Source: Verrucomicrobiales bacterium (GTDB lineage Bacteria; Verrucomicrobiota; Verrucomicrobiia; Verrucomicrobiales; DEV007). From it: a DNA stretch of 44,260 bases. The position numbers and the translations under genes are program-made. Below the pieces are notes generated by a model. That model saw only the letters and a program-made list of their open reading frames with translations. It had not been told where the DNA came from and did no database searches. Positions 4,035-43,346 of the stretch are shown here, one piece after another (within the stretch, counting starts at the first letter, position 1; every line of letters begins with the position of its first letter). The DNA lies in NCBI GenBank assembly GCA_024641425.1, contig JAHEDC010000002.1, positions 1 through 44,260 on the forward strand, given 5' to 3'.

Positions 4035-4057
4035 AGGTTCGGCCTCACGTCGAACCT
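4035..4057. repeat. Inverted repeat at the convergent gene end
   Basis: AGGTTCG (4035-4041) and CGAACCT (4051-4057) form a perfect 7-bp stem with a 9-nt loop. It overlaps the TAG stop of the minus-strand gene. It lacks a proper T-run on the minus strand, so a role as terminator or mRNA 3'-end hairpin is only a guess. Confidence 0.35.
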
Positions 4058-5024
4058 ACTCACCACCCTTGAACAATTGCCGGGCCATTTTGAGACCCAT
4101 TTCCTGCATGGCCCGCATTTGCTGCTGGCTTTGCTGGAAGACCTCCTGTTGTTCGGGTGTGAGAACTTGTCCCGCACTGTTGGCAATGTTCACCTGTAAC
4201 TCGTTCTGTTGTTCGAGGAATCTAGCGACGCTTTCCTCGGTCAAGGTCGTGGGGTCAAATTTGTTCTGGTCGTTGTAATCGAAGTCGTAATTTATTTGCT
4301 GGCGCTCATCGTACATGAGTTGCACGAGGGATTCTTCTTGGTCGACCGTGAGGGGAATTCCTTTCTCGGTGAGCGACTTGCTTAGTCCGCTCGTGGTCAT
4401 CCGCTCGTTCAGCGTCGTCGAGTAGAATTCGTAGTAAGCGTAGTCGGATTCGTCATTGAGGAACTCCTTGATACGGTTTTTGGCGGCATCCTGATCATCC
4501 TTTATTTTCTTGAGGAGGGCTTCTCGTTCGGGAGCCGAGAGATTGCCGCCCATGAGCTTCATTCCTGCTTCGACGTTAGCCATCTGGAGATCGGTGAGCA
4601 GCCCCTTGAAGTGCTCGAGCTCGTCCGGTTTCAAATCAAGCTTTTCGTAGAGCCCCTTGAAAAACAGGTCCAACTGGGCTTTCTGCTGGGCCACCATCAT
4701 GTCCTTCATGGCTGGGTTCTCCATCATCTCGGCCATGGCTTTCATTGGGTTTTCCTTCAGAGGATCGGGTGATGCCTCGGCAACGGTCTCCTTTTTAAGA
4801 TCACCGAGTTTCTTCTCCAATTCCGCGACCTTGTTCTCAAGGCGCCGGTTCTGTTCCCCAAGGAGTTCTGCTTTCTCGCGTTCGGGCCTCGCGACCGCTT
4901 CGGCGTGGGCCTCGAGAGTGGCGTCATTGTTGGAAAGCGAGACTTCCAGATCACGGCGGTCAATCAGCTGGTAGATGTTGAATCCAAGAAGCGCGGCAAT
5001 GAGCAGGATGACGACGGATTTCAT
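4056..5024 (-). CDS. Membrane-anchored coiled-coil protein, function unknown
   Basis: The 322-residue product is unrecognised. Residues ~3-20 (VVILLIAALLGFNIYQLI) form a single membrane segment or signal anchor. Residues ~25-80 are heptad-like and Glu/Lys-rich, a probable coiled coil. The rest is helical, charged and methionine-rich (NPMKAMAEMMENPAMKDMM). The C-terminus has LTPEQQEVFQQSQQQM, reminiscent of the LTxxQ motif of Spy/CpxP-type periplasmic chaperones, but this is too weak to assign a function. The topology implied is a short N-terminal anchor with the body outside the cytoplasm. The start ATG at 5024 gives the hydrophobic segment immediately, which supports it. The gene stands alone, convergent with the dehydrogenase gene and divergent from the enolase-superfamily gene. 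Confidence 0.75.
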   Translation of the reverse strand: MKSVVILLIAALLGFNIYQLIDRRDLEVSLSNNDATLEAHAEAVARPEREKAELLGEQNRRLENKVAELEKKLGDLKKETVAEASPDPLKENPMKAMAEMMENPAMKDMMVAQQKAQLDLFFKGLYEKLDLKPDELEHFKGLLTDLQMANVEAGMKLMGGNLSAPEREALLKKIKDDQDAAKNRIKEFLNDESDYAYYEFYSTTLNERMTTSGLSKSLTEKGIPLTVDQEESLVQLMYDERQQINYDFDYNDQNKFDPTTLTEESVARFLEQQNELQVNIANSAGQVLTPEQQEVFQQSQQQMRAMQEMGLKMARQLFKGGE

Positions 5025-9501: not shown

Positions 9502-12500
9502 TTAGGGTTCAGGAGGGACGCGGTCGGCGCAAAAGATGCCGAGGACGCCGGGAGGAAGATCGGGGAAGGAAAGGGTCTCTCCTTCGCGGAGCACCCGGAG
9601 GCTTCGCTTGCCCGCGAGGCGGGGATGGATGAAGTGTTGCGAACTCTCGAGGAGTATTCCGTTCAAGGCGATCAGGTAATCTCCCTTGCGGAGGCCGGCT
9701 CGGTCTCCGGTTCCGCCTGGCATCACGTGGATGAGGTAGGGGCGGACTCCGGAAACGGGCTGCCCCTTGCTATCCGTGAAGGTGACGCTTTCGAGCGTGC
9801 CTTGCCCGTCGAAGGTGGCGGTCATGCTTTGGTAGCCGTAGGCGGATTCATCGACCTCTTCGCGGATGAGGACCGTGGAGACGGAGGGGATCCTTGTGCT
9901 CACGCTTGTCAACTCGCCGGCAAAGCCCCTCGCGCGGTTGCCTCCTGCGTCCTCGTAGGTCGTGGTGGCGATCTCGGCATCTGGGATCGATGGATGCGGC
10001 GCGAAGGTCTTCCGCTCGAGAAAGAAGGGGACAAGGGCTGGATCGAAACCCGAAAGAATATTGGCGACGGGTTGCCCCTGGGGGCTGAACTCGTCGGTGT
10101 AGTCAAAATATCCGCTTGGATAGTTCATGTCAGGATAGCGGATGGCATTTCCATCGGTGTCTTCGTAGTGCCAATGAATTGATCGTCTCGTGCCGGTTTC
10201 CCAGTATTCGAATTCGCGAATCTGGGTGGCAAAACCATGCTTCCCCTGATCGAAGCCGGATTCATGATAGCGTGATGCCCGGCCTTTGTCATCGTAGAGG
10301 GCTTCGAAGCGAAGGTAGCCGTCGGAATGGCGTGTTGATTGGCCTTCGGCGTCGAGGTAGGTCCAAACGTCTGAATGCTTTATCTTTCCCTTGGCCCAAC
10401 GGGTGGTCTGGATCTCCACGGCGTAAGGGAATTTCTCGGGATCGAAGCCCGATTCGGTGATGATGGTATTGCGGCCGAACTCGTCGAATTCATCGACGCG
10501 CTCCGTGTAGCCGGAGTCGCTGGTCACGCGGCCTCCCTTCGCATCAAAGTAGGTGTGGATCCATTGGGTGACGGTTCCGGCTTCATTGTATACGAAGCGG
10601 ATGTGTTCGCGGTAGAACGGGTGTTCATCGGGATCGAAGCCGATCTGCTGGACAGCTTCGATGCGGTCATTGGCATCCATGACTTGCTCGTAGCGGAGAT
10701 TGCCCGGTTGATCGCGGACGGGATGGCCCTCGGAATCGGTGTAGGTCTCGACGGCTGTTGTTCCGCCCTCGGATCCAGTGCGGTATTCGAGGCGCTTCCC
10801 GAAGTGGCCTTCCTTCGTCTGATCGTAGCCCGTCTTGATTATCGCGATGGTCAGGCCCTCGTCATCGAAGTCTTCGGTATAGTCGAGGTAGCCGTCCGGA
10901 TGGCGGACGGGGGTGCCTGATCCATCAAGGAACGTCCAGGTGGCACTGCTCGCCGAGGGCAAATCTTTGGTCGCGTAGTGGTAATCGATGACGGCGGTGG
11001 CATAGCCGGTCAGGGCCTCGTCGAAACCGGTGTGCCTCTCGGACTGCGGTCGCCCCTGCCCATCGTAGTCGCGGCTCCATGCCTCGTTTCCCTTGCTGCA
11101 GCGAACCGGATTGCCGTCCGCGTCGAGGTATTGGGAGGACTTGCGCAGGGGGAATTCCCTCGTGTCTCCCATGGCGACACTCTCGCGCCGGGCGGCGATC
11201 CAGGCGGATGCCCGCGCAGGTCGGATTGGAGTGGCATCGGGATTCGGAAGATGGGCCTGATCGGCATTCTGGGAGTGGCTTGTCAGGGCGGCGCTCAAAT
11301 TCCAATGGGTTGCTTTCTCCGTGGCCCGTTCCGGCCAGTCCGTTCGCGTGACGGCCCTGTCGTAGGACTCCCGCGTGGGATCCATTCCGCTGAGGGTGAC
11401 AAGTCGGAGGCGGCCCAGCGAGTCGTAATCCTCGGTGTAAAGCGAATTCCCGTCGGCATGGTAGGCGATGCCGACGTCCTTCGACTGGTAGGCTATGATG
11501 CGGCGACGGATGCCGCCGCCGGGCTCGGGCTCGAGGGTTTCCAACTGCCGGGAAAAGGGATACGCCGCGGGGGGGTAGCCGTCCCGTCGGATTTCGACCG
11601 GCTGACCGAAACGATTTCGTCGGGTGATGCTGGTAAGATATTGACCGGGAGCGAAGGCCGGCTTGTCGTCCGCGTCCTCGAACCGGCTCCTGATGGTGTG
11701 GGTGCCATCCTCGTCCCAGGTATAGGTATCGATCTCGCGGAAGGGGGCGCCCTCCAACGCGGGAAGACCGGAAAATGTCCACGAGGCACGGCGGAGTTGC
11801 GTGTCATAGGTCATCGTTTCGTTCGTTGCGCCGTCGCCAAAGGAAAACCGGGCCGGAGTCGTGCCGTCGAGGCCGAAACGTGAAACGGCGACGCGATTAC
11901 CATGGGCATCGAAGTCATTTCGGATGCGGTGCACGCCCCCGCTGGCCGCGGGATTCCCCTCGGCGTCGAAGAAGCGGCTTTCAACACGGGGATCGGGATC
12001 GTTCAGATGGTAGGCTACCTCCAGCCGGCTCCAGCCTTCCTTTCCACCGGTGACGATTCCGTCCGCGTCGAGATTGACAATGGCGGATACCCGGCCGTTC
12101 CCATCGTATTCGAGGCGCCGGATGGAGACGCCATTCGGATCTGCCTTGATGGCCTGATCCTGATCGGTGTAGGCAAGCACTTCCTCCTGACCGAGGGCGT
12201 CGCGGAGAAGAAGAACGGACGAGATTCCGCCGCGCGTGGCAATGGCACGGGATTCGCCGTCGACGTAGTCGGCGCGGACGCGTGCCTGTGGATTGCTCTC
12301 GGTTCCGCTCCCGTCGGGGTAGGCGTAACGAAGCCGCGCGACGAGCTGTCCGGAAGGGTCGAGGAGGCGTTCCTCGGCGGGGAGACCATCGTCGTCGGAG
12401 TAGACGATTTCGAAGGCGGCGGGACGCATGTGTTCGGGGAGTCCCTCGAAAATGCCGGGAATGAGTTCGCCGAGGTTTGGATGGGGCGTGGTTCGGCCTC

Positions 12501-13860
12501 GGGAATCGACGCACTCAAGGCGTTTGCTCCGGCCATTTCTTCCGGCGCGGATGAGCCGGAAGGCCTGGAAGCGGTGGGTGAGATCTTCCTCCGACAACGG
12601 TTTGCCGATTCCAAAATACTGGCCATGGCGGCGGGTGAAATCCGTGTAGATCCTCGCGTCGTTCCAAACATAGAAGAAGCCATGAAAGGCCCACGCCGAA
12701 GCGGCGATGAGGAATGATGCCACCAGGCAACCGAGGGTGAGGCCGGTGCGATGCCTGCGAATCCAGCGGAAGGAGCGGGTGGCTGCGGTCAACGGTTTGG
12801 CGAGAACGGCTTCTCCATTTCGGAAGCGACGGATGTCATCGGCGAGGGCTGCGGCTGACAAATAGCGGTCCTGCGGGCGCTTGCGCAGGCATTTCAGGCA
12901 CACCGTTTCCAGATCGCGCGGTGTGTCCGGCGCGAAATTGGAGGGCGGGGGCGGGTCGTCGAGGCGGAGACGACGAAGCATCTCTGGCTCGGTCGAGGCG
13001 GAGAGAGGCACGCGGCCGGCGAGTGTCTGGTAGAGCATGACGCCGAGCGCGTAGATATCGGTTCCCGGACCGACGGGGCCGAAATCGCTGTAGGCCTGCT
13101 CGGGTGCCATGTAATGGGGGGTGCCCATTTTCTCTCCGCTGAGAGTGAGTTGGGGGCCGCTTCCATCGTCGTCGAGACGCTTGGCAAGCCCGAAATCGCC
13201 GATCTTCGGCTCCCCGTCCGAAGCGAGGAAAACATTGGCAGGCTTTAGATCGCGATGCACGACGGCACGCTGGTGGGCCCAATCCGCCGCCCGGGCGAGC
13301 TTTTCGAAGAAAAGCGCGATTTCCGGGTAGTCCTTGCCACGGGTTTTCATCCACTGGCGCATGCCTCCGCCATCGACATACTCCATGGAAATGAAGGGGA
13401 GCCCCTCGTCCTCCCCCAGCTCATAGATCTGGATGATGTTCGCGTGTTGGAGTCCGGCGGCAATCTCGGCCTCGCTAAGGAAACGAGCGCGGCCGCGCTC
13501 GCTCGAGTGCTCCCCGGCGAGCACCATTTTCAGCGCGACGATACGGTTCAGTTTTGTCTGGCGGGCGCGGTAGACGACGCCCATTCCCCCTCGGCCAAGT
13601 TCGTCGAGTATCTCGTAGCCTTCGATCTTCGGATGGATCTTCGGCGTTGCGGCGCATGCCGGTGGTGTTTGGGAGCCGGAATTCAGTCGCGGATCGATTA
13701 CCCGGGTTTCGTCAAGGGCGCCCTCCCCCGGGCGGTCGGTGTCCCGGGACGCGGGCTCCCCGCAATGCGGGCAGAGAAAGTCCTCCGTGGAAGTTGCAGG
13801 CCGAACCGTTTCGCCTGGTTCCCACGCGTGACCGTTGGGACAGCGGAGCCATGGATCCAT
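9502..13860 (-). CDS. Giant transmembrane Ser/Thr protein kinase with extracytoplasmic ~64-residue repeats and C-terminal PDZ domain
   Basis: The product has 1,452 residues. N-terminus: a zinc-ribbon-like pair RCPNGH (C7, H11) and CPHC (C30, C33). Hanks-type kinase about 82-345: glycine loop GRGGMG (89-94), K111, E130, HRDLKPAN (202-209), DFG (222-224) and APE (252-254), so catalytic residues are intact. One membrane span about 373-397 places the rest outside the cytoplasm. Residues about 500-900 contain diverged YD/RHS-like units (YDGNGRVSAI, FDAEGNPAAS). From about 911 to 1370 at least eight units recur with a period near 64. A PDZ domain lies at about 1372-1425 (GGTGDRAGLRKGDYLIALNG). PASTA, WD or TPR domains are more usual outside such kinases, so this sensor region looks uncommon. 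The gene is divergent from the dcw cluster; any link to envelope sensing is inference. The start ATG at 13860 leads directly into the zinc ribbon. Confidence 0.9.
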   Translation of the reverse strand: MDPWLRCPNGHAWEPGETVRPATSTEDFLCPHCGEPASRDTDRPGEGALDETRVIDPRLNSGSQTPPACAATPKIHPKIEGYEILDELGRGGMGVVYRARQTKLNRIVALKMVLAGEHSSERGRARFLSEAEIAAGLQHANIIQIYELGEDEGLPFISMEYVDGGGMRQWMKTRGKDYPEIALFFEKLARAADWAHQRAVVHRDLKPANVFLASDGEPKIGDFGLAKRLDDDGSGPQLTLSGEKMGTPHYMAPEQAYSDFGPVGPGTDIYALGVMLYQTLAGRVPLSASTEPEMLRRLRLDDPPPPSNFAPDTPRDLETVCLKCLRKRPQDRYLSAAALADDIRRFRNGEAVLAKPLTAATRSFRWIRRHRTGLTLGCLVASFLIAASAWAFHGFFYVWNDARIYTDFTRRHGQYFGIGKPLSEEDLTHRFQAFRLIRAGRNGRSKRLECVDSRGRTTPHPNLGELIPGIFEGLPEHMRPAAFEIVYSDDDGLPAEERLLDPSGQLVARLRYAYPDGSGTESNPQARVRADYVDGESRAIATRGGISSVLLLRDALGQEEVLAYTDQDQAIKADPNGVSIRRLEYDGNGRVSAIVNLDADGIVTGGKEGWSRLEVAYHLNDPDPRVESRFFDAEGNPAASGGVHRIRNDFDAHGNRVAVSRFGLDGTTPARFSFGDGATNETMTYDTQLRRASWTFSGLPALEGAPFREIDTYTWDEDGTHTIRSRFEDADDKPAFAPGQYLTSITRRNRFGQPVEIRRDGYPPAAYPFSRQLETLEPEPGGGIRRRIIAYQSKDVGIAYHADGNSLYTEDYDSLGRLRLVTLSGMDPTRESYDRAVTRTDWPERATEKATHWNLSAALTSHSQNADQAHLPNPDATPIRPARASAWIAARRESVAMGDTREFPLRKSSQYLDADGNPVRCSKGNEAWSRDYDGQGRPQSERHTGFDEALTGYATAVIDYHYATKDLPSASSATWTFLDGSGTPVRHPDGYLDYTEDFDDEGLTIAIIKTGYDQTKEGHFGKRLEYRTGSEGGTTAVETYTDSEGHPVRDQPGNLRYEQVMDANDRIEAVQQIGFDPDEHPFYREHIRFVYNEAGTVTQWIHTYFDAKGGRVTSDSGYTERVDEFDEFGRNTIITESGFDPEKFPYAVEIQTTRWAKGKIKHSDVWTYLDAEGQSTRHSDGYLRFEALYDDKGRASRYHESGFDQGKHGFATQIREFEYWETGTRRSIHWHYEDTDGNAIRYPDMNYPSGYFDYTDEFSPQGQPVANILSGFDPALVPFFLERKTFAPHPSIPDAEIATTTYEDAGGNRARGFAGELTSVSTRIPSVSTVLIREEVDESAYGYQSMTATFDGQGTLESVTFTDSKGQPVSGVRPYLIHVMPGGTGDRAGLRKGDYLIALNGILLESSQHFIHPRLAGKRSLRVLREGETLSFPDLPPGVLGIFCADRVPPEP
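9750..11133 (-). repeat. Tandem ~64-codon repeat array inside the kinase gene
   Basis: Repeat starts, judged from the T-Y-x-D-x-x-G-x-P-x-R motif, fall at residues 910, 976, 1039, 1103, 1167, 1231, 1301 and 1361, a spacing of 60-70 and mostly 63-66. Each unit then shows D-G-Y, E-F-D-x-x-G-R and S-G-F-D-P motifs at matching offsets. The units are diverged (no near-identical DNA), so the array is old and maintained as protein. Related but looser units occur before residue 900. Confidence 0.75.
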
Positions 13861-25791: not shown

Positions 25792-26901
25792 ATGCCGCTG
25801 AAAATCGTTATAGCCTGCGGGGGAACCGGCGGACATCTTTTTCCCGGGATCGCGGTCGCCGAGGAATTGCAGAAGCGTGGCCACGAATGCCTCGTTCTCA
25901 TTTCCCGAAAGGAGATCGATGCCCTCGCTTCCTTCGGCTACGACCACCTGCGGTTCGAGAAACTCGATGCCATCGGCATGCCGAGACTCCTCTCCCCGAA
26001 GATGTTGCCTTTCATGATCGGATTCTGGAAGACGCTTCGGCGTTGCCGGAAAATGCTGCGCGAGTTCAAGGCGGACGCGGTTCTCGGCATGGGGGGATTC
26101 ACCTCGCTTCCGCCCGTCTGGGCGGGGAAAAGGCTTGGTGCGCGCACTTTCGTTCACGATTCCAATTCCATTCCCGGGAAGGCCAACCGACTCACCTCCC
26201 GCTTCGCCGACTGTGTGTTTCTCGGGATCGGGGAATGCGCGGCATTTTTCCCGAATCGGCGCACCGAGGTGACGGGAACACCCATTCGTTCTTCCCTTCT
26301 CAAGCCCGTGGCCCGCGAGGAGGCGGAGGCATTCTTCGGGTTCGAGTCCTCGCCCGATGCCAAGACCCTCTTTGTCACCGGAGGCAGCCAAGGGGCCCGG
26401 GGAATCAATCGCGGGGTCAGCGGTGCGGTCGGGGAGTTGAAGAAGCGAGTGGGGGCAAAACTTCGGATCATCCATCTCGCGGGACGCGAGGACGCGGAAC
26501 TCGTCGCGAAGGCCTACGCCGCCGAAGGGGTCGCATTCTCGGCCCCGCCTTTTTGCAAGCGGATGGAATGCGCCTACGCGATCGCCGATCTCGTTGTTTC
26601 CCGCTCGGGAGCGTCGAGTCTGACGGAACTGGCGATGTTCGGAATGCCTTCCGTCCTCGTCCCCTATCCCTACGCCGCCGAGGATCACCAGACCCGGAAC
26701 GCGGAAACCTTCACCCGAAGGGACGCCGCCATCATGCTTCGTGAGGCGGACATCACCCCGGCTGGATTTGGTAAGCTTCTCGGGGACCTCCTCGCCGATG
26801 ATGCCGCCCGCGCGCGGATCGGGGCCGCCGCAAAGAACCTTGCCACTCCCCGCGCAGCGGAGAATATTGCCGCTTTCATCGAAGATAAATGTCGCAGATA
26901 G
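25792..26901 (+). CDS. murG: Lipid II synthase MurG (N-acetylglucosaminyltransferase)
   Basis: The 369-residue GT-B glycosyltransferase adds GlcNAc from UDP-GlcNAc to lipid I on the cytoplasmic face of the membrane. The N-terminal glycine loop GGTGGHLFPGIAVAEEL, the second domain TGGSQGARGIN, and the donor-binding stretch SRSGASSLTELAMFG plus PYPYAAEDHQ are all diagnostic. The 3' end overlaps the murC-murB gene by 13 bases. Confidence 0.95.
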   Translation: MPLKIVIACGGTGGHLFPGIAVAEELQKRGHECLVLISRKEIDALASFGYDHLRFEKLDAIGMPRLLSPKMLPFMIGFWKTLRRCRKMLREFKADAVLGMGGFTSLPPVWAGKRLGARTFVHDSNSIPGKANRLTSRFADCVFLGIGECAAFFPNRRTEVTGTPIRSSLLKPVAREEAEAFFGFESSPDAKTLFVTGGSQGARGINRGVSGAVGELKKRVGAKLRIIHLAGREDAELVAKAYAAEGVAFSAPPFCKRMECAYAIADLVVSRSGASSLTELAMFGMPSVLVPYPYAAEDHQTRNAETFTRRDAAIMLREADITPAGFGKLLGDLLADDAARARIGAAAKNLATPRAAENIAAFIEDKCRR

Positions 26902-29204
26902 AACTATGGAGCCGCCAATTGCGCGAGCGCAGCCGTCAACCCATTCGCATCCACCTTATCGGGGTGGCTGGCTCGGGGATGAGCGGTCTGGCTTCGCTTA
27001 TGCTCGGGTTGGGACACAAGGTCAGCGGTTCGGATCGGACGCGGACGAAGGAGATCGACCGACTTGAACGGGCTGGGCTCGTTTTCGCGGGCGCGCAATC
27101 CGCGGATTCGATCGCGGACGCGGAACTTGTGGTCTATTCCTCGGCGATAAAGCCGGGGAACGCCGCCTTTGATGCGGCGGTGGCGGCCGGGATTCCGATG
27201 ATGAGACGCGCGGAGGCCCTCGCGGCCCTTCTCGCGCAGCGGAGGGGAATCGTCGTGGCAGGGACCCACGGGAAGACGACCACCTCGGCTCTGGCGGCGC
27301 ATGTTCTACGGGGAGGGGGACTTGATCCCTCGCACTATGTCGGTGCGGAGATTCCAGTGCTTGGCACCAACGCCCACTGGAGTATCGATGGAGAATACAT
27401 GGTTGCCGAAGGGGACGAGAGCGACGGCACGCTCGTGAATTTCCATCCGGAGTTCGCCCTGATCCTGAATATCGAGGAAGAGCACCTCGACCACTACACG
27501 AACGGCATTGTCGGGATTCGCGAAGTCTTCCAGCGATTCGCGAGCCAGACCACGGGTGCGGTGATCTATTGCGCGGAGGATCCCGAGGCGCACGTGCTCT
27601 GCGTGGATCGACCGGGCAGTATCAGTTTTGGATGGGACCCACGCTGGGAGTTCTCCGCCGAGATTGTCGAATCACGCGGGGCAAGCACGGATTTCATCGC
27701 GAGAAGGAACGGGCGCGAGATCGGCACCGTTACCCTGGGCATTCCGGGCGCGCACAACGTGTTGAATGCCCTCGCCGTTATTGCTCTCGCGACAAAACTG
27801 GGAGTCGCTTTCGAGCGGATCGCCGAGGCACTGCACAGTTTCCGCGGTGCGAAACGCCGCTTCGAGGTGCGGTACCGCTCGACGAATTTCGCCGTCGTCG
27901 ATGATTACGGACATCATCCGACGGAAATCAGGGCGACGGTGCGCACGGCACTCGCGACGAAGCCGGAACGTCTCATCTGCGTATTCCAACCGCACCGCTA
28001 CAGCCGCACCCAACTCCTCCGGAAGGAATTCGGGACCGCGTTCCGGGGCGTCGACATGCTGTATGTCACCGGCATCTATGCCGCAAGCGAGGTTGCCATT
28101 CCGGGTATCTCCGGGCAAACGATCGTCGACGAGGTTCTGGCCACGGGACAGGAGAATGTCCGCTATTTGCCGGATCTTGAAACGGCCCATTTGGAAATCG
28201 GCAGCCACTTGCGGGAGGGCGACATGGTGCTTACGCTCGGGGCGGGGAACATCCACGAGATCGCGACCATCCTGGAGAGGGACCTTGGCGTTCTCGATGA
28301 GTTGCGCAAGCGACTCAACGAACCCGAAACCGAATTGCGCCTCTATGAACCGATGAGCCGGCATACAACGATGAAAGTCGGCGGCCCGGCGCAATATTGG
28401 ATTTCGCCCCGCAGTGTGGATAGTTTTGCCGTTAGCCTGCGCTTCTGCGCGGAACGGGCCATTCCGGTGCGGGTGGTCGGGCGCGGTTCGAATCTCCTCA
28501 TCCGGGACGGAGGCATTCCCGGTGCGGTCATTCATCCTTCGAAAGGTGAATTCGAGGAAGTTCGTTTTGTTGGCAATCATCTTGTCTGCGGTGTCGGCGC
28601 GCGCTTCAAATTGGTCAGCGCGGTGGCGAAGAAGGCGGGTATCGGCGGATTCGAGTGGATGGAAGGCATCCCGGGGAGTGTCGGGGGAGGACTTCGCATG
28701 AATGCGGGAGCCATGGGACGCGAGACCTTCGACCATGTGGTGCGTGTCAGCTATCTCGACCGCGCGGGGAACCTTCACGAAAAGGCCGGCGAGGAATTCG
28801 CCCACCAGTACCGGAACGTCCCCGAATTCGTCGAGAACTACGCTGTCCAAGCCGAATTCGATGGCGAGTCGGTGGAGCCCGATGAGATCGAACGCCGATT
28901 AGAGGAATCGGTGCGCAAGCGACGGGCCTCGCAACCCGTCGCCGCCAGTGCCGGCTGCATTTTCAAGAATCCCGAAACGATTCCGGCAGGTCGGCTCGTC
29001 GAGGAACTCGGTCTGAAGAATGCCGCCGAAGGAGCCGCGCGAGTCTCTGAGATCCACGGAAACTTCATCGTCAACGACGGGGGCGCGCGCGCCTCGCAGG
29101 TGCTTTCCCTTATTGCCCGGGTGCAGGCCGCCGCGCTTCAGGAACGGGGGATCGCCCTTCAAACCGAAGTACAAATCCTCGGCCAGGACGCGCCCTACCG
29201 ATGA
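26889..29204 (+). CDS. murC/murB: MurC-MurB fusion: UDP-MurNAc:L-alanine ligase / UDP-enolpyruvoyl-GlcNAc reductase
   Basis: The 771-residue product has two enzymes in one chain. Residues 1 to ~460 are MurC: IHLIGVAGSGMSGLA, the ATP loop AGTHGKTTTSALA with K129, EGDESDGTL, NIEEEHLDHY and DDYGHHPTE. Residues ~475-771 are MurB, an FAD enzyme: MSRHTTMKVGGPA, GRGSNLLIRDGG (FAD binding), GIPGSVGGGLRMNAGAMG, SAGCIFKNPE with the likely catalytic serine, and IHGNFIVNDGGA. MurB makes UDP-MurNAc, the substrate of MurC, so the fusion joins consecutive steps. No stop or frameshift lies at the junction. Separate murC and murB genes are the norm; Chlamydiae fuse MurC to Ddl instead, and here ddl follows as a separate gene. 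Confidence 0.95.
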   Translation: MSQIELWSRQLRERSRQPIRIHLIGVAGSGMSGLASLMLGLGHKVSGSDRTRTKEIDRLERAGLVFAGAQSADSIADAELVVYSSAIKPGNAAFDAAVAAGIPMMRRAEALAALLAQRRGIVVAGTHGKTTTSALAAHVLRGGGLDPSHYVGAEIPVLGTNAHWSIDGEYMVAEGDESDGTLVNFHPEFALILNIEEEHLDHYTNGIVGIREVFQRFASQTTGAVIYCAEDPEAHVLCVDRPGSISFGWDPRWEFSAEIVESRGASTDFIARRNGREIGTVTLGIPGAHNVLNALAVIALATKLGVAFERIAEALHSFRGAKRRFEVRYRSTNFAVVDDYGHHPTEIRATVRTALATKPERLICVFQPHRYSRTQLLRKEFGTAFRGVDMLYVTGIYAASEVAIPGISGQTIVDEVLATGQENVRYLPDLETAHLEIGSHLREGDMVLTLGAGNIHEIATILERDLGVLDELRKRLNEPETELRLYEPMSRHTTMKVGGPAQYWISPRSVDSFAVSLRFCAERAIPVRVVGRGSNLLIRDGGIPGAVIHPSKGEFEEVRFVGNHLVCGVGARFKLVSAVAKKAGIGGFEWMEGIPGSVGGGLRMNAGAMGRETFDHVVRVSYLDRAGNLHEKAGEEFAHQYRNVPEFVENYAVQAEFDGESVEPDEIERRLEESVRKRRASQPVAASAGCIFKNPETIPAGRLVEELGLKNAAEGAARVSEIHGNFIVNDGGARASQVLSLIARVQAAALQERGIALQTEVQILGQDAPYR

Positions 29205-32714: not shown

Positions 32715-34739
32715 ATGCTTGAATATACACGCGATGACGCGGAACGCAGTACCGAGGCGACCCCCCTCTCGGTGAAGGTGGTCGGTATTGGTGGCGCTGG
32801 TGCCAACGTACTCGACCGCATCGCCCTGGAAGGAATGGACGGGGCCGAACTGATCTCGATGAATACCGATGTGCGCGGACTGAGCACCTCGGTCGCGAAT
32901 AGCAAAATCCAACTCGGCCGGACTCTGACGCAGGGCCTCGCCGCCGGTGGTGATCCCGAACTGGGCCAGCAGGCCGCGGAGGAGGCCGAGGCTGAGATCC
33001 GCGCCGCTCTGCAAAACAGCGGAATGGTTTTCATCTGCGCCGGCCTCGGCGGGGGAACCGGTTCCGGTGCGGCACCTTACATCGCTAAGATCGCCCGGGA
33101 GGAAGGGGCATTCGTCGTCGCCTTCGTGACGGTGCCCTTTTCGTTCGAGGGACGTCGCCGCCTCCAGCAGTCCTCCGATTCCCTGCGACAGCTGGAAATC
33201 TATGCGAACGCCCTCGTCACCTTCGACAATGACCGCATGGGCGACCTCGTCCTCCCGAAGGAAGGCATCCAGCAGGCCTTCACGGCCGCCGATCAGATCA
33301 TCAGCCAGAGCGTGCGCGCCGTGACCAGCCTCGTGACCCAGCCCGGTCTCATCCGCATCGGAATGGACGATTTGCTCACCGCCCTGCGGAACCACAATTC
33401 ACGCTGCCTCTTCGGCTTCGGCCAGGCGAAAGGCGAAAACCGCGCCCAGGAAGCCCTCGCCCGTGCCCTCAAGAGCCCGTTGCTCGACAAGGGCCAACTC
33501 CTCAAACACGCCGCCAATGCCATCATTCAGGTAACGGGAGGTGACAGCATGACTCTCTATGAGGTCGAGATCCTCATGAACGAGGTCGGCAAGCACGTTC
33601 GCGACAGCGCCCAGATTCTCTTCGGGGTTTCCGCCGACGCCAAACTCACCGACAGCATTACCGTCACGATCATCAGTTCGGTCCAAGAGGCGCAACTGAA
33701 GCCCCTTCCGGAAGGCGAGGCCGCTCCGGCTCCGGCGGCGAGACCCGCTGCGGCCCCGGCTGCCGCGCCACCACCGACTGGAGGAGGAGGCCCGCAAAGC
33801 CCCGCCGCAGTCGCAAAAAAGTCTGAGGCTCCGGCTCAGGATGAGCCGGAGCGCGCACCCGCCGCGTCCAACCCTCAACCCGCTCCCGGGGGCGCGCCCC
33901 CTCCGCAAGGAAAGGCCGTGCCTCTAGTGGCCAAGGTGGCGGCTCCGGAGCTACCGGCGATCGAGGCCGCACCCGCCGACGAAGCGGTGCCGGAGGCGCC
34001 TCCTCCCGAGCAGGAAACCGAACCGGAGACCGAGCCTGAACTTGAGGTGGTCGAAGTCATTGAGGAGCTTGAGGTTTTCGAGGAACAAAAGATCTCGGAG
34101 CTGGATGTTTTCGTCGATCACGATGAGGACGGATCTCCCTTCGTGGACGAAGGCCCCGAAGACGCGCCGGTCTTTGCGAACCCTATCGCCGAGGCGATGG
34201 GCGGTGACGCCAAAGGGGACGACGAAATCGTGGAGTTGGAGGAATCATCCCTTGAAGACGTCTTCATCGATCCTTCTCCGGACGAAGAGGAAGCCGTTGC
34301 GGTTAGTCCCGAGCCCGAGCCTGAAGTAGCGGCGGCGAAGCCGGAATCCGTCCCGGTTCCGAAGACAAAAGGTGGGCTCTCAAAGTTCACGTCGCGGTTC
34401 CGCGGAAGGCCGAAAGAGAAGACCGGGGATTCGTCCGACGCATCCGAATCCGTCGGAACCGAGATGCCCGAGATGGCGGAACTGCCTGCCAAGGCGGAGT
34501 TGCCGTCGACCCAATTGCCTCCCAAGCGCCGACCGGTGGAGCCCGCTCCGGAGCCCGCTTCATCCGAGCATTTGCCGCCTGTAAAGACTGCGCCAAAGGC
34601 TTCTCCCCTCGCAGCGCAACAGGACGAGCTGATTCCGCGGAAGCCCGTCGCAAGGGGGCGCTTCGAGAAAACAGAACCCACCATCATCGATGGTGAGGAT
34701 CTCGATGTCCCGGCGTTTCTTCGAAAGAAAGGAAAGTAG
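32715..34739 (+). CDS. ftsZ: Tubulin-like division GTPase FtsZ with very long linker and altered T7 loop
   Basis: FtsZ forms the Z-ring. Of 674 residues, the GTPase core is about 15-325: VKVVGIGGAGANVLDRI, NTDVRGL, the tubulin signature GGGTGSGAAP (from residue 112), FSFEGRRRL and the NDR triad. The T7 synergy loop, NxDFxD in E. coli (N207, D209, D212), reads R214-I-G216-M-D-D219, so N207 and D209 appear replaced. Residues ~326-656 are a Pro/Ala- then Glu-rich disordered linker, versus about 50 in E. coli. The conserved C-terminal peptide ends the protein (DLDVPAFLRKKGK). A second, diverged copy of this peptide's coding sequence lies at 35619-35672. Core divergence may be usual for this lineage. 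Confidence 0.93.
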   Translation: MLEYTRDDAERSTEATPLSVKVVGIGGAGANVLDRIALEGMDGAELISMNTDVRGLSTSVANSKIQLGRTLTQGLAAGGDPELGQQAAEEAEAEIRAALQNSGMVFICAGLGGGTGSGAAPYIAKIAREEGAFVVAFVTVPFSFEGRRRLQQSSDSLRQLEIYANALVTFDNDRMGDLVLPKEGIQQAFTAADQIISQSVRAVTSLVTQPGLIRIGMDDLLTALRNHNSRCLFGFGQAKGENRAQEALARALKSPLLDKGQLLKHAANAIIQVTGGDSMTLYEVEILMNEVGKHVRDSAQILFGVSADAKLTDSITVTIISSVQEAQLKPLPEGEAAPAPAARPAAAPAAAPPPTGGGGPQSPAAVAKKSEAPAQDEPERAPAASNPQPAPGGAPPPQGKAVPLVAKVAAPELPAIEAAPADEAVPEAPPPEQETEPETEPELEVVEVIEELEVFEEQKISELDVFVDHDEDGSPFVDEGPEDAPVFANPIAEAMGGDAKGDDEIVELEESSLEDVFIDPSPDEEEAVAVSPEPEPEVAAAKPESVPVPKTKGGLSKFTSRFRGRPKEKTGDSSDASESVGTEMPEMAELPAKAELPSTQLPPKRRPVEPAPEPASSEHLPPVKTAPKASPLAAQQDELIPRKPVARGRFEKTEPTIIDGEDLDVPAFLRKKGK

Positions 34740-39285: not shown

Positions 39286-40701
39286 TCAGACGTTCACGTC
39301 TACCCCCGGTTGATAGTATTCGAGCAGCATCCGGATGATCTCATCGCTCGTCACTCCTGCCGCCTCGGCGCTGAAGGTGGTGAGAATACGGTGCCGGAGA
39401 ACGGGAGGAGCCATGGCAATCACGTCGGCGGTCGTGCAATGGAAACGTCCGTGGAGAATGGCGCGGGCCTTCGCGGCCGTAACGAGGTTGATGCCAGCCC
39501 GGGGGCCGGCGCCCCATCCAACCATCTCGCGGACGAAGGGGGGCGCGTCGGGTTGCTTCGGGCGTGTGGCGCGGGCAAGGGTGGCGGCGTATTCAATGAC
39601 GTGGTCGGCGACCGGGACCCGACGGACGACCTGCTGCAACTTCAGGACCTCGTCGGCGCCAAGGGCAACCTCGACCTTCGCCTCATGGGCTCCGGTGACC
39701 TGGCGGATGATGCGGACTTCCTCCTGCGCGGTAGGATAGTCGACGATGATGTTGAACATGAAGCGGTCGAGTTGGGCCTCGGGGAGAGGATACGTTCCCT
39801 CCTGCTCGATCGGGTTCTGTGTCGCGAGGACGAAGAAGGGTTCGGGAAGGTGCCAGGTCTGGTCGCCGACCGTCACATGGTGTTCCTGCATTGCTTCCAG
39901 GAGGGCGGCCTGGGTTTTCGGAGGGGTGCGGTTGATTTCATCGGCGAGCACCATATTGGCGAAAATCGGACCCTTTACGAAGCGGAAGCGCCGGGCGCCG
40001 GTGGCGGGATCCTCCTCCAGGACCTCGGTGCCCGTGATGTCGGCGGGCATGAGGTCGGGGGTAAACTGAACGCGCTTGAAGCTGAGGTCGAGGACATGGC
40101 TGAGGGTGCTGACGAGAAGGGTTTTGGCAAGTCCCGGTACTCCCATGAGCAGGGCGTGGCCGCGGCAGAAGATGGCGATAAGCATTTGCTCGATGACCTC
40201 GTCTTGCCCGACGATGACCTGGGCGAGTTGCTCGCGCATTTGCGCGTATGCGCGGTTCAGCTCACCCACGAGCGCGGTGTCGCTCGCAGGAGTGGTGCCG
40301 CCTGGGGGGGGGGCGGATTTCGCATCCCCCACTTTCCCGGTCTCGGAGCGGGAGCTAACCGACTTGGGGGCCGTCGCCTCGATCACGGGAGGTCCTTCAG
40401 GTTCGTTCTCGCCGGCTTCCAACTCGAATACGAGCGCGCAGTTGCCGAGCTGGATGCTGTCTCCGGAGCTGAGACTTCCCGCGCGGGCGCTCTCGCCATT
40501 GAGCCGGGTGCCGTTGGAGCTTTCGAGATCGTAGACCCACCAGCGGCCGCTGTCGTTGCGGATCATGGCGTGGCGCCCCGAAACCTTCGTGTCGTCAAGC
40601 TGGAGGTCACAGGAATAGTCGCGGCCGAGGGTCAGGCCCTCGACAGGGACGTTATAGGCTTTGCCCTCGCGAGGGCCGGAGGTGAAAGTGATTCGCGGCA
40701 T
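39286..40701 (-). CDS. MoxR-family AAA+ ATPase with N-terminal FHA domain
   Basis: The 471-residue product joins two modules. Residues ~1-95 are an FHA phosphothreonine-binding domain: [11 protein letters not shown] (G26, R27), SGRH (41-44) and SSNGT (61-65) are the peptide-contact residues. A Pro/Gly/Ser-rich linker (about 97-140) follows. Residues ~150-471 are MoxR AAA+: Walker A GVPGLAKT (187-194), Walker B VLADE (251-255), EAMQEHHVT, and sensor 1 in [19 protein letters not shown]. MoxR proteins usually lack FHA, so this one may respond to a Ser/Thr kinase; the kinase at 9502-13860 is a candidate only by presence. The linker is encoded by a run of ten G on the plus strand (40304-40313). 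Confidence 0.92.
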
Positions 40702-40778
40702 GGATGCTGAGGTCGGAATGCGGGAAAGTCCGGGACGCGGGCTTGCGCGGAGCTTTCGGTGGGAGGATGATAGAAGGG

Positions 40779-42209: not shown

Positions 42210-43346
42210 ATGAAACTCCTTAAGAAACTTGCCTTTTTCGCCGCGGTTCCCGTCGGTCTCGTCCTCGTGGTCGAGCTCATCCTACGATTCGCGTTTCCGG
42301 TCGAGATGGAACCGACAACCCGTGTCATCCTTCGGAACGATGTTCCGGAATTCGCCGACACCGAGGTAACCTATCAGATTTCTCCGGAAGGTCTGCGGGG
42401 TTACCAGTGGTCGAAGACGCCGGGTGAAGGCACCCTTCGAATCCTCGTCGTGGGCGTGAATTCGACCTCCCACATGCTCCAGAACGTCGAGAATACCTGG
42501 TGGGGGCAGTTGGCGAGGAGGGTTGAGGAAAAGACCGGAAAACGCGTCGAGGCCGCGGCTCTGGCGACCCTTGCCGACCCCGGTATTCTCCCGGGAGTCG
42601 TTTGGGCGGAACGGGTATTGGCGGAAACCCGCGCCGATCTCCTCCTCGTTTGCTACGGGTTCGGGGATGTGATGAAACCGCCCTTCGACTACGAATTCGA
42701 CCCGGACCGGCTTTCCAAATTGAAGGTCGAGCCCGAGCGCGGCTTCAAATACAAACTGGCCGAGGTCTCGCAGATCTGCCGCCGCATACGGCGGGGCAGG
42801 GTGGCCTCGGCGCGGCGGACTCAGCTTGCGTCGTGGAGTCAGGAAAACCAGTATCTCGCGATGCTTCAGGCGGGGATAAGCCATTATCAGCAGCAGCCTG
42901 CCGTCTCGGGCGTGGTGAGGAGCAGTGACCCGCTTCAGGAATACCTGCTGGGTGTCCGGGGATTCATCGACCTCGCCAAACGCAAGGGCCTCGGACTTCT
43001 GGTGATCGGGGAGCCTTCCCTTCATCATGAATTCCTGGGAAGGGATAGCCTTGATGCCAGCGAACTGCGGCAGGACGGCCGGTTGAGGCTCATTACGACC
43101 GTGCGCCCCGGTCCGGAGCCCACCAGCGAGGGGAGGGCGGACTTCGCCTGGGTGCAGGGGGAGCTCGATCGCTATTACGGGAATGCGGCTCTCGTCTGCA
43201 AGGAGGCCGGAGTATCCTTCGTCTCGCTCAACGGGAAGATTCCGCGAAATCCCGAATATTTTCTGACCGAGGTACTTTTCACCGACAAGGGGGCACGCAA
43301 GGCGTCGGAAATTCTTCTTCCGGCCATCGAACCCTTGATCCCCTAG
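42210..43346 (+). CDS. Membrane-anchored SGNH-hydrolase-like protein with atypical active-site blocks
   Basis: The 378-residue product has an N-terminal span (about 6-28, FFAAVPVGLVLVVELILRFA) then an SGNH-like fold: ILVVGVNSTSHM (78-89) occupies the place of the GDS block, LLLVCYGFGDV (144-153) that of the G-x-N block, and FTDKGARKASEILLP near the end that of the D-x-x-H block. Of the usual Ser/Gly/Asn/His set, a serine is available in the first block, but the Asn and His positions look changed (D and K/R). It may therefore have a changed mechanism or be a non-catalytic acyl/glycan-binding relative. It follows the secreted three-domain gene by 72 bp on the same strand. Confidence 0.65.
   Translation: MKLLKKLAFFAAVPVGLVLVVELILRFAFPVEMEPTTRVILRNDVPEFADTEVTYQISPEGLRGYQWSKTPGEGTLRILVVGVNSTSHMLQNVENTWWGQLARRVEEKTGKRVEAAALATLADPGILPGVVWAERVLAETRADLLLVCYGFGDVMKPPFDYEFDPDRLSKLKVEPERGFKYKLAEVSQICRRIRRGRVASARRTQLASWSQENQYLAMLQAGISHYQQQPAVSGVVRSSDPLQEYLLGVRGFIDLAKRKGLGLLVIGEPSLHHEFLGRDSLDASELRQDGRLRLITTVRPGPEPTSEGRADFAWVQGELDRYYGNAALVCKEAGVSFVSLNGKIPRNPEYFLTEVLFTDKGARKASEILLPAIEPLIP

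What the first reader, a model, noticed from the sequence alone, without database searches (positions are those of the whole stretch)
9502..13860. Ser/Thr kinase with a ~64-residue periodic outer domain and terminal PDZ
The kinase core is catalytically complete and membrane anchored. The outer ~1,000 residues are an unusual repeat array with motifs Y-x-D-x-x-G-x-P, E-F-D-x-x-G-R and S-G-F-D-P, recurring at residues 910, 976, 1039, 1103, 1167, 1231, 1301 and 1361. A PDZ domain at the very end could bind C-termini of envelope proteins. I know of no described receptor kinase with this layout, and it sits divergently beside the division cluster.
Basis: partly seen in the sequence, partly recalled or inferred. 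Interest (0 to 1): 0.75.

Follow-up and report, generated by a model that had tools for sequence, protein, structure and literature searches.

The report
Receptor kinase with RHS-type outer domain
This Verrucomicrobiales gene encodes a membrane kinase whose long outer part is a chain of beta-hairpins of the kind found in RHS toxins and animal teneurin receptors; in related bacteria the same outer part is fused to other signalling domains (TIR, STAND), which suggests an undescribed group of bacterial surface receptors with exchangeable inner parts.

Summary
ORF 9502-13860(-) encodes 1452 aa: a Ser/Thr kinase with its catalytic motifs, one transmembrane helix, and a ~1050-aa outer region with a real 64-residue period (stronger than in any of 1000 shuffles; the array reaches back to about residue 560). 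The 64-aa unit is two 32-aa beta-hairpin units. Relatives with regular 32-aa repeats pass the Pfam RHS_repeat cut-off, and their predicted structure matches RHS cores and teneurins (E down to 1e-32). So the repeat is not a new fold but a 32-residue variant of the RHS/YD hairpin.

The outer region is a module: a juxtamembrane 'cap' of ~120 aa, then the hairpin array, with or without a C-terminal PDZ. It also occurs on four TIR proteins, an nSTAND1 NTPase and two enzyme-less proteins with the terminal PDZ. A cap model built without the kinase finds it with 26.8 bits (best of 5000 shuffles 5.9). I found no description of such receptors; bacterial teneurin-like proteins are reported to lack an intracellular domain.

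A division link is not supported: none of ten relatives has a kinase beside mraZ. Ligand and function are inferred. New variant of a known kind.

The parts
9502..13860 (-). whole gene, 1452 aa receptor-type Ser/Thr kinase
   Evidence: open frame 1457 aa, no inner stops
13762..13842 (-). N-terminal segment with Cys7, Cys30 and Cys33 (CPNG...CPHC), possible zinc ribbon (residues 7-33)
   Evidence: sequence; zinc binding inferred
12844..13617 (-). protein kinase domain (residues 82-339), catalytic motifs present
   Evidence: Pkinase 159 bits; motifs
12667..12747 (-). single transmembrane helix (about residues 372-398), preceded by Arg-rich RSFRWIRRHR, so kinase inside and C-terminus outside
   Evidence: hydropathy; topology inferred from the positive-inside rule
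12313..12672 (-). juxtamembrane cap domain (residues 397-516), shared with TIR, STAND and PDZ-only relatives
   Evidence: leave-one-out HMM 26.8 bits, best of 5000 shuffles 5.9; hhalign 96%, E 4.5e-9
9751..12183 (-). array of 64-aa units, each two RHS/YD-type beta-hairpins of about 32 aa (residues about 560-1370)
9973..11139 (-). six best-conserved 64-aa units (residues 908-1296)
   Evidence: 85-95 bits each
9538..9747 (-). C-terminal PDZ-like domain (residues 1372-1441)
   Evidence: PDZ_6 22.5 bits; SNX27 PDZ E 3.6e-5; BLASTP 3e-6 to the terminal PDZ region of L177, which is over Pfam cut-offs

Best explanation
It is a single-pass receptor kinase. The kinase lies in the cytoplasm. The outer region, a cap next to the membrane followed by a shell or spiral of RHS/YD-type beta-hairpins and a PDZ domain at the tip, lies in the periplasm or at the cell surface. 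Shown by computation: the domain layout, the repeat, its kinship to RHS hairpins, and the presence of the same cap-plus-hairpin module on proteins with other inner domains. Inferred: the outer module senses a ligand or a contact (a protein C-terminus through the PDZ, a sugar or protein through the hairpin shell), changes oligomeric state or shape, and so switches the kinase on; in relatives the same kind of signal would be wired to TIR or STAND effectors.
For: Kinase complete and membrane-anchored. Hairpin array: AF2 model of residues 895-1452 has two hairpins per 64 aa, with block-mean pLDDT of about 71-89 over the first ~120 residues and 57-88 up to ~310; Foldseek top hits RhsA, other Rhs cores, TcC and teneurin-3, E 1.7e-8 to 1.5e-5. 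Model of the ectodomain of the related TIR protein L038: pLDDT about 75-92 over most of the array, matches to Rhs cores E 1e-32 and teneurins E about 1e-24. Related proteins pass RHS_repeat (28-44 bits, cut-off 22). Same order cap, repeats, PDZ in L177, L180 and the kinase.
Against: No second kinase with this ectodomain was found: single copy in its own genome, none in 75 genomes of the family. RHS_repeat itself scores only 12.1 bits on this protein, so the link runs through relatives and structure. The fold matches are local: TM-scores 0.08-0.15 for the kinase Rhs hits and up to 0.40 for the TIR relative. The PDZ and the last repeats are poorly modelled, and so is the cap of the TIR relative. 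No ligand, substrate or expression data.
Confidence: 0.62

Rival explanations
1. The hairpin array is a passive stalk or ruler that holds the PDZ tip at a set distance in the envelope; only the PDZ senses, for instance exposed C-termini of unfolded envelope proteins, as PDZ domains do in the HtrA/DegS stress proteases.
For: PDZ at the very end in the kinase and in two relatives; degenerate repeats with little conservation beyond the hairpin frame.
Against: Five relatives (four TIR, one STAND) have cap and repeats but no PDZ, so sensing cannot depend on it across the family.
Confidence: 0.2
2. A kinase that couples cell-wall or division state to the neighbouring mraZ-ftsZ cluster, like PASTA kinases.
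For: Divergent position 345 bp from mraZ; kinase domain closest in NCBIfam to PknB_PASTA_kin.
Against: No PASTA domain; equivalog score 250 against a cut-off of 450. In 10 relatives with mraZ no kinase lies in the ~7 kb fetched. The ectodomain is otherwise found on non-kinase proteins.
Confidence: 0.08
3. A contact-dependent toxin or adhesin of the RHS type (polymorphic toxin) to which a kinase was fused by chance.
For: RHS hairpins are best known from such toxins (PMC3482391, PMC13018210).
Against: No DP-x-G-L type RHS core signature; the protein ends in a PDZ-like domain, not in a toxin domain; kinase at the N-terminus before the membrane helix; several different signalling domains in the same place in relatives.
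Confidence: 0.04
4. Assembly artefact joining a kinase gene to an unrelated RHS-like gene.
For: Fragmented assembly of 721 contigs, architecture seen once.
Against: One open frame without inner stops; the cap sits directly after the membrane helix in all relatives and also here.
Confidence: 0.03

Closest known systems
RHS/YD-repeat proteins (Rhs effectors, Tc toxin B/C cocoon)
   Same: Array of beta-hairpins; relatives of this ectodomain pass Pfam RHS_repeat; Foldseek E to 1e-32
   Different: Period 32 (64 in the kinase) against 21 in classical RHS proteins measured side by side; no RHS core signature, no C-terminal toxin; sits on a receptor-type protein
Metazoan teneurins and bacterial teneurin-like proteins (TLPs)
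   Same: Hairpin shell outside the cell; teneurins, like this protein, are single-pass with the N-terminus inside
   Different: TLPs are described as lacking an intracellular domain and as carrying toxins (PMC13018210); Pfam finds none of their accessory domains here; here an intracellular kinase
PknB/PASTA-type receptor Ser/Thr kinases
   Same: Cytoplasmic kinase, one helix, repeated outer sensor
   Different: No PASTA domains; RHS-type hairpins, cap and PDZ instead
TIR and STAND proteins with the same cap and repeats in Verrucomicrobiae (L038, L095, L096, L178, L179)
   Same: Homologous cap and 32-aa hairpin array after one helix
   Different: Inner domain is TIR_2 or nSTAND1, no PDZ

Membership tests
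Bacterial Hanks-type Ser/Thr kinases | Pkinase domain over cut-off with Lys, HRD, DFG | tested here: met
Bacterial Hanks-type Ser/Thr kinases | phosphotransfer activity | not testable with these tools
   needs an assay
PASTA kinases (PknB/Stk1) | extracellular PASTA repeats / NF033483 over cut-off | tested here: not met
   250 bits against 450, no PASTA hit
RHS_repeat (PF05593) / YD repeat (TIGR01643) | family model over its cut-off on this protein | tested here: not met
   12.1 against 22; 14.4 against 15.8
RHS_repeat (PF05593) / YD repeat (TIGR01643) | family model over its cut-off on homologues of the same ectodomain | tested here: met
   L038 38.3, L178 35.5, L177 28.2, L180 30.3 bits; YD on L038 21.4
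RHS/YD fold | consecutive beta-hairpins forming a shell | tested here: inconclusive
   hairpins predicted, Foldseek E 1.7e-8 (kinase) and 1e-32 (TIR relative); closure into a shell not shown, low TM-scores
Polymorphic RHS toxins | RHS core DP-x-G signature and C-terminal toxin domain | tested here: not met
   C-terminus is PDZ-like
Teneurin-like proteins | TTR, FN-plug and NHL domains plus YD shell | tested here: inconclusive
   none found by Pfam; no dedicated structural comparison
PDZ | Pfam PDZ model over cut-off | tested here: not met
   22.5 against 27 here; homologous terminal domains of L177/L180 are over cut-off
Cap + hairpin receptor module (named here) | cap homologous to that of TIR/STAND/PDZ-only members, directly after the helix | tested here: met

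The most novel reading that the evidence does not exclude
Verrucomicrobiota have a family of teneurin-like signalling receptors: one recognition module (cap, RHS-type hairpin shell, optional PDZ tip) that recognises neighbours, phages or damaged envelope parts and is plugged onto exchangeable inner effectors (kinase, TIR, STAND), i.e. a bacterial analogue of immune or adhesion receptors built from a toxin scaffold.
Probability: 0.3. Interest if true: 0.85.

Novelty: new variant of a known kind. Interest (0 to 1): 0.64.

Why it matters
RHS/YD shells are known in bacteria mainly as toxin carriers and in animals as teneurin adhesion receptors; bacterial teneurin-like proteins are reported to lack an intracellular domain. 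Here the hairpin array sits on proteins with cytoplasmic kinase, TIR or STAND domains, which makes signalling through such a shell in bacteria directly testable and gives a concrete family for asking what the outer part recognises.

Tried and rejected
A search with the 64-aa unit alone found only one relative and made the kinase look isolated; wider profiles and the ectodomain alignment were needed. The first genome-contig scan with the single protein found nothing. Weak hits to residues 930-1036 of the query in many genomes are, from their place in the query, PDZ matches (not opened). Hits G436 and G446 are classical RHS proteins of period 21, not members. Seventeen other kinase frames of the same genome carry neither the repeat nor the cap. 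PADLOC hits of the kinase (PD-T4-6, mad6) match the kinase domain only and do not show defence. Plasmids: only the TIR domain of a relative finds matches. Division link: not conserved. Rfam: nothing in the window. Promoter/terminator scan: nothing decisive. Literature searches found no such receptor, within an open-access library only.

Full report
What is there. The - strand ORF 9502-13860 (1452 aa) has, in order: a short Cys-containing N-terminus, a protein kinase domain (82-339, 159 bits) with its catalytic motifs, one hydrophobic helix (about 372-398), and an outer region of about 1050 residues. The Arg-rich stretch before the helix suggests that the kinase is inside and the C-terminus outside (inference).

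The repeat. Autocorrelation of the outer region peaks at 64 residues and exceeds all of 1000 shuffles. A model made from six clear units finds further, more diverged units back to about residue 560, so there are up to 13 units or remnants, more than the eight reported. In the AlphaFold2 model of residues 895-1452 each 64-aa unit holds two beta-hairpins, one turning at the D-x-x-G of 'FD..GR' and one after 'SGFD'. Local confidence is mostly 70-89 over the first 120 residues, more mixed up to about 310, and poor beyond that, including the PDZ.

What the repeat is. Foldseek ranks RhsA, other Rhs cores, Tc toxin C and teneurin-3 first (E 1.7e-8 to 1.5e-5), followed by the single-layer sheet of OspA. 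TM-scores are low (0.08-0.15), so this says 'same kind of hairpin chain', not 'same closed shell'. Relatives are clearer. An Akkermansia TIR protein (L038, JAFURE010000018.1) has about 26 units spaced 32 residues, passes RHS_repeat and YD_repeat cut-offs and gives a model (pLDDT 75-92 over most of the array) that matches Rhs cores at E 1e-32 and teneurins at about 1e-24. Classical RHS proteins measured alongside have period 21; this group has 32 or 64. The nSTAND relative also has a stronger 64 than 32 period, so the pairing of units is not peculiar to the kinase.

The module. Alignments showed a second shared part, directly after the membrane helix: a cap of about 120 residues with a pattern like Y-x(7)-G-x(3)-G-I-x-x-L-S-x(5)-H-R. 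A model built from seven non-kinase caps finds the kinase cap at 397-516 with 26.8 bits (E 1.6e-6) against at most 5.9 in 5000 shuffles and 0.5 or less in other kinases of the same genome. Domain scans of the relatives: TIR_2 in L038, L095, L096 and L178; nSTAND1 (107 bits) in L179; no enzyme but a C-terminal PDZ over cut-off in L177 and L180. The kinase and the two PDZ-only proteins share the order cap, repeats, PDZ (BLASTP 3e-6 over the last repeat and PDZ). Members are scattered: 1 of 75 genomes of the family (this one), and a small minority of genomes of the class (many of its hits are repeat-only proteins). Named relatives come from freshwater and gut metagenome assemblies (contigs matched to genome handles by their lengths). 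That the order is Verrucomicrobiales follows from the Akkermansia genome being listed as 'same order'.

Function. The scattered distribution and the exchange of inner domains behind one outer module suggest a recognition module wired to different outputs. TIR and STAND domains are common in bacterial defence and self-killing systems (general knowledge), and the eLife study of NTP-dependent conflict systems discusses kinase effectors and a TIR context (PMC7159879); that makes recognition of other cells, phages or envelope damage a plausible role, but nothing here tests it.

Division cluster. mraZ lies 345 bp away, divergent. In ten relatives in which mraZ was found and its surroundings read, no kinase lies in the stretch fetched. 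The neighbourhood is not evidence of function.

Novelty. Each part is known: kinase, RHS/YD hairpins, PDZ. The combination of an RHS-type outer region with cytoplasmic signalling domains was not found in the papers searched; the 2026 study of bacterial teneurin-like proteins says they lack an intracellular domain (PMC13018210), and Akkermansia YD-repeat proteins are only listed as outer-membrane proteome members (PMC4960237). The literature searched is limited to open-access papers, and annotation databases may already list such proteins under 'RHS repeat' or 'TIR domain-containing'.

Noticed in passing
window 32715-34739 (+): FtsZ of 674 aa: GTPase and C-terminal FtsZ domains end near residue 321, followed by a ~350-aa Pro/Ala/Glu-rich tail, far longer than usual.
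   Followed up: no
window 26889-29204 (+): MurC-MurB fusion: Mur ligase domains and MurB_C in one 771-aa protein.
   Followed up: no
own genome G000: 51 protein kinase matches in a 6.5 Mb assembly, most in frames over 700 aa; of the 17 other kinase frames examined, none shares this ectodomain.
   Followed up: partly
L186 (G000:C509:3000-13500): The same genome has a 2455-aa classical RHS/YD protein with an RHS core and a secreted-looking N-terminus.
   Followed up: partly
L181, L182, L183, L184: A second group of YD-repeat proteins in family f102 with a signal-peptide-like start, about 10 repeats and a shared C-terminal multi-helix membrane domain of unknown family.
   Followed up: no
L072, L074, L097: Small Akkermansia-genus proteins with one membrane helix, a cap-like segment and a few repeats, no known inner domain.
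   Followed up: partly
L073:1629-3878(+): Akkermansia-genus protein with a few YD repeats before a membrane helix and then a region that by eye resembles an alpha/alpha-barrel repeat (terpene-cyclase-like); not scanned.
   Followed up: no
window 4056-5024 (-), 39310-40710 (+), 42210-43346 (+): Long ORFs without a Pfam match; some may be the shadow of genes on the other strand.
   Followed up: no
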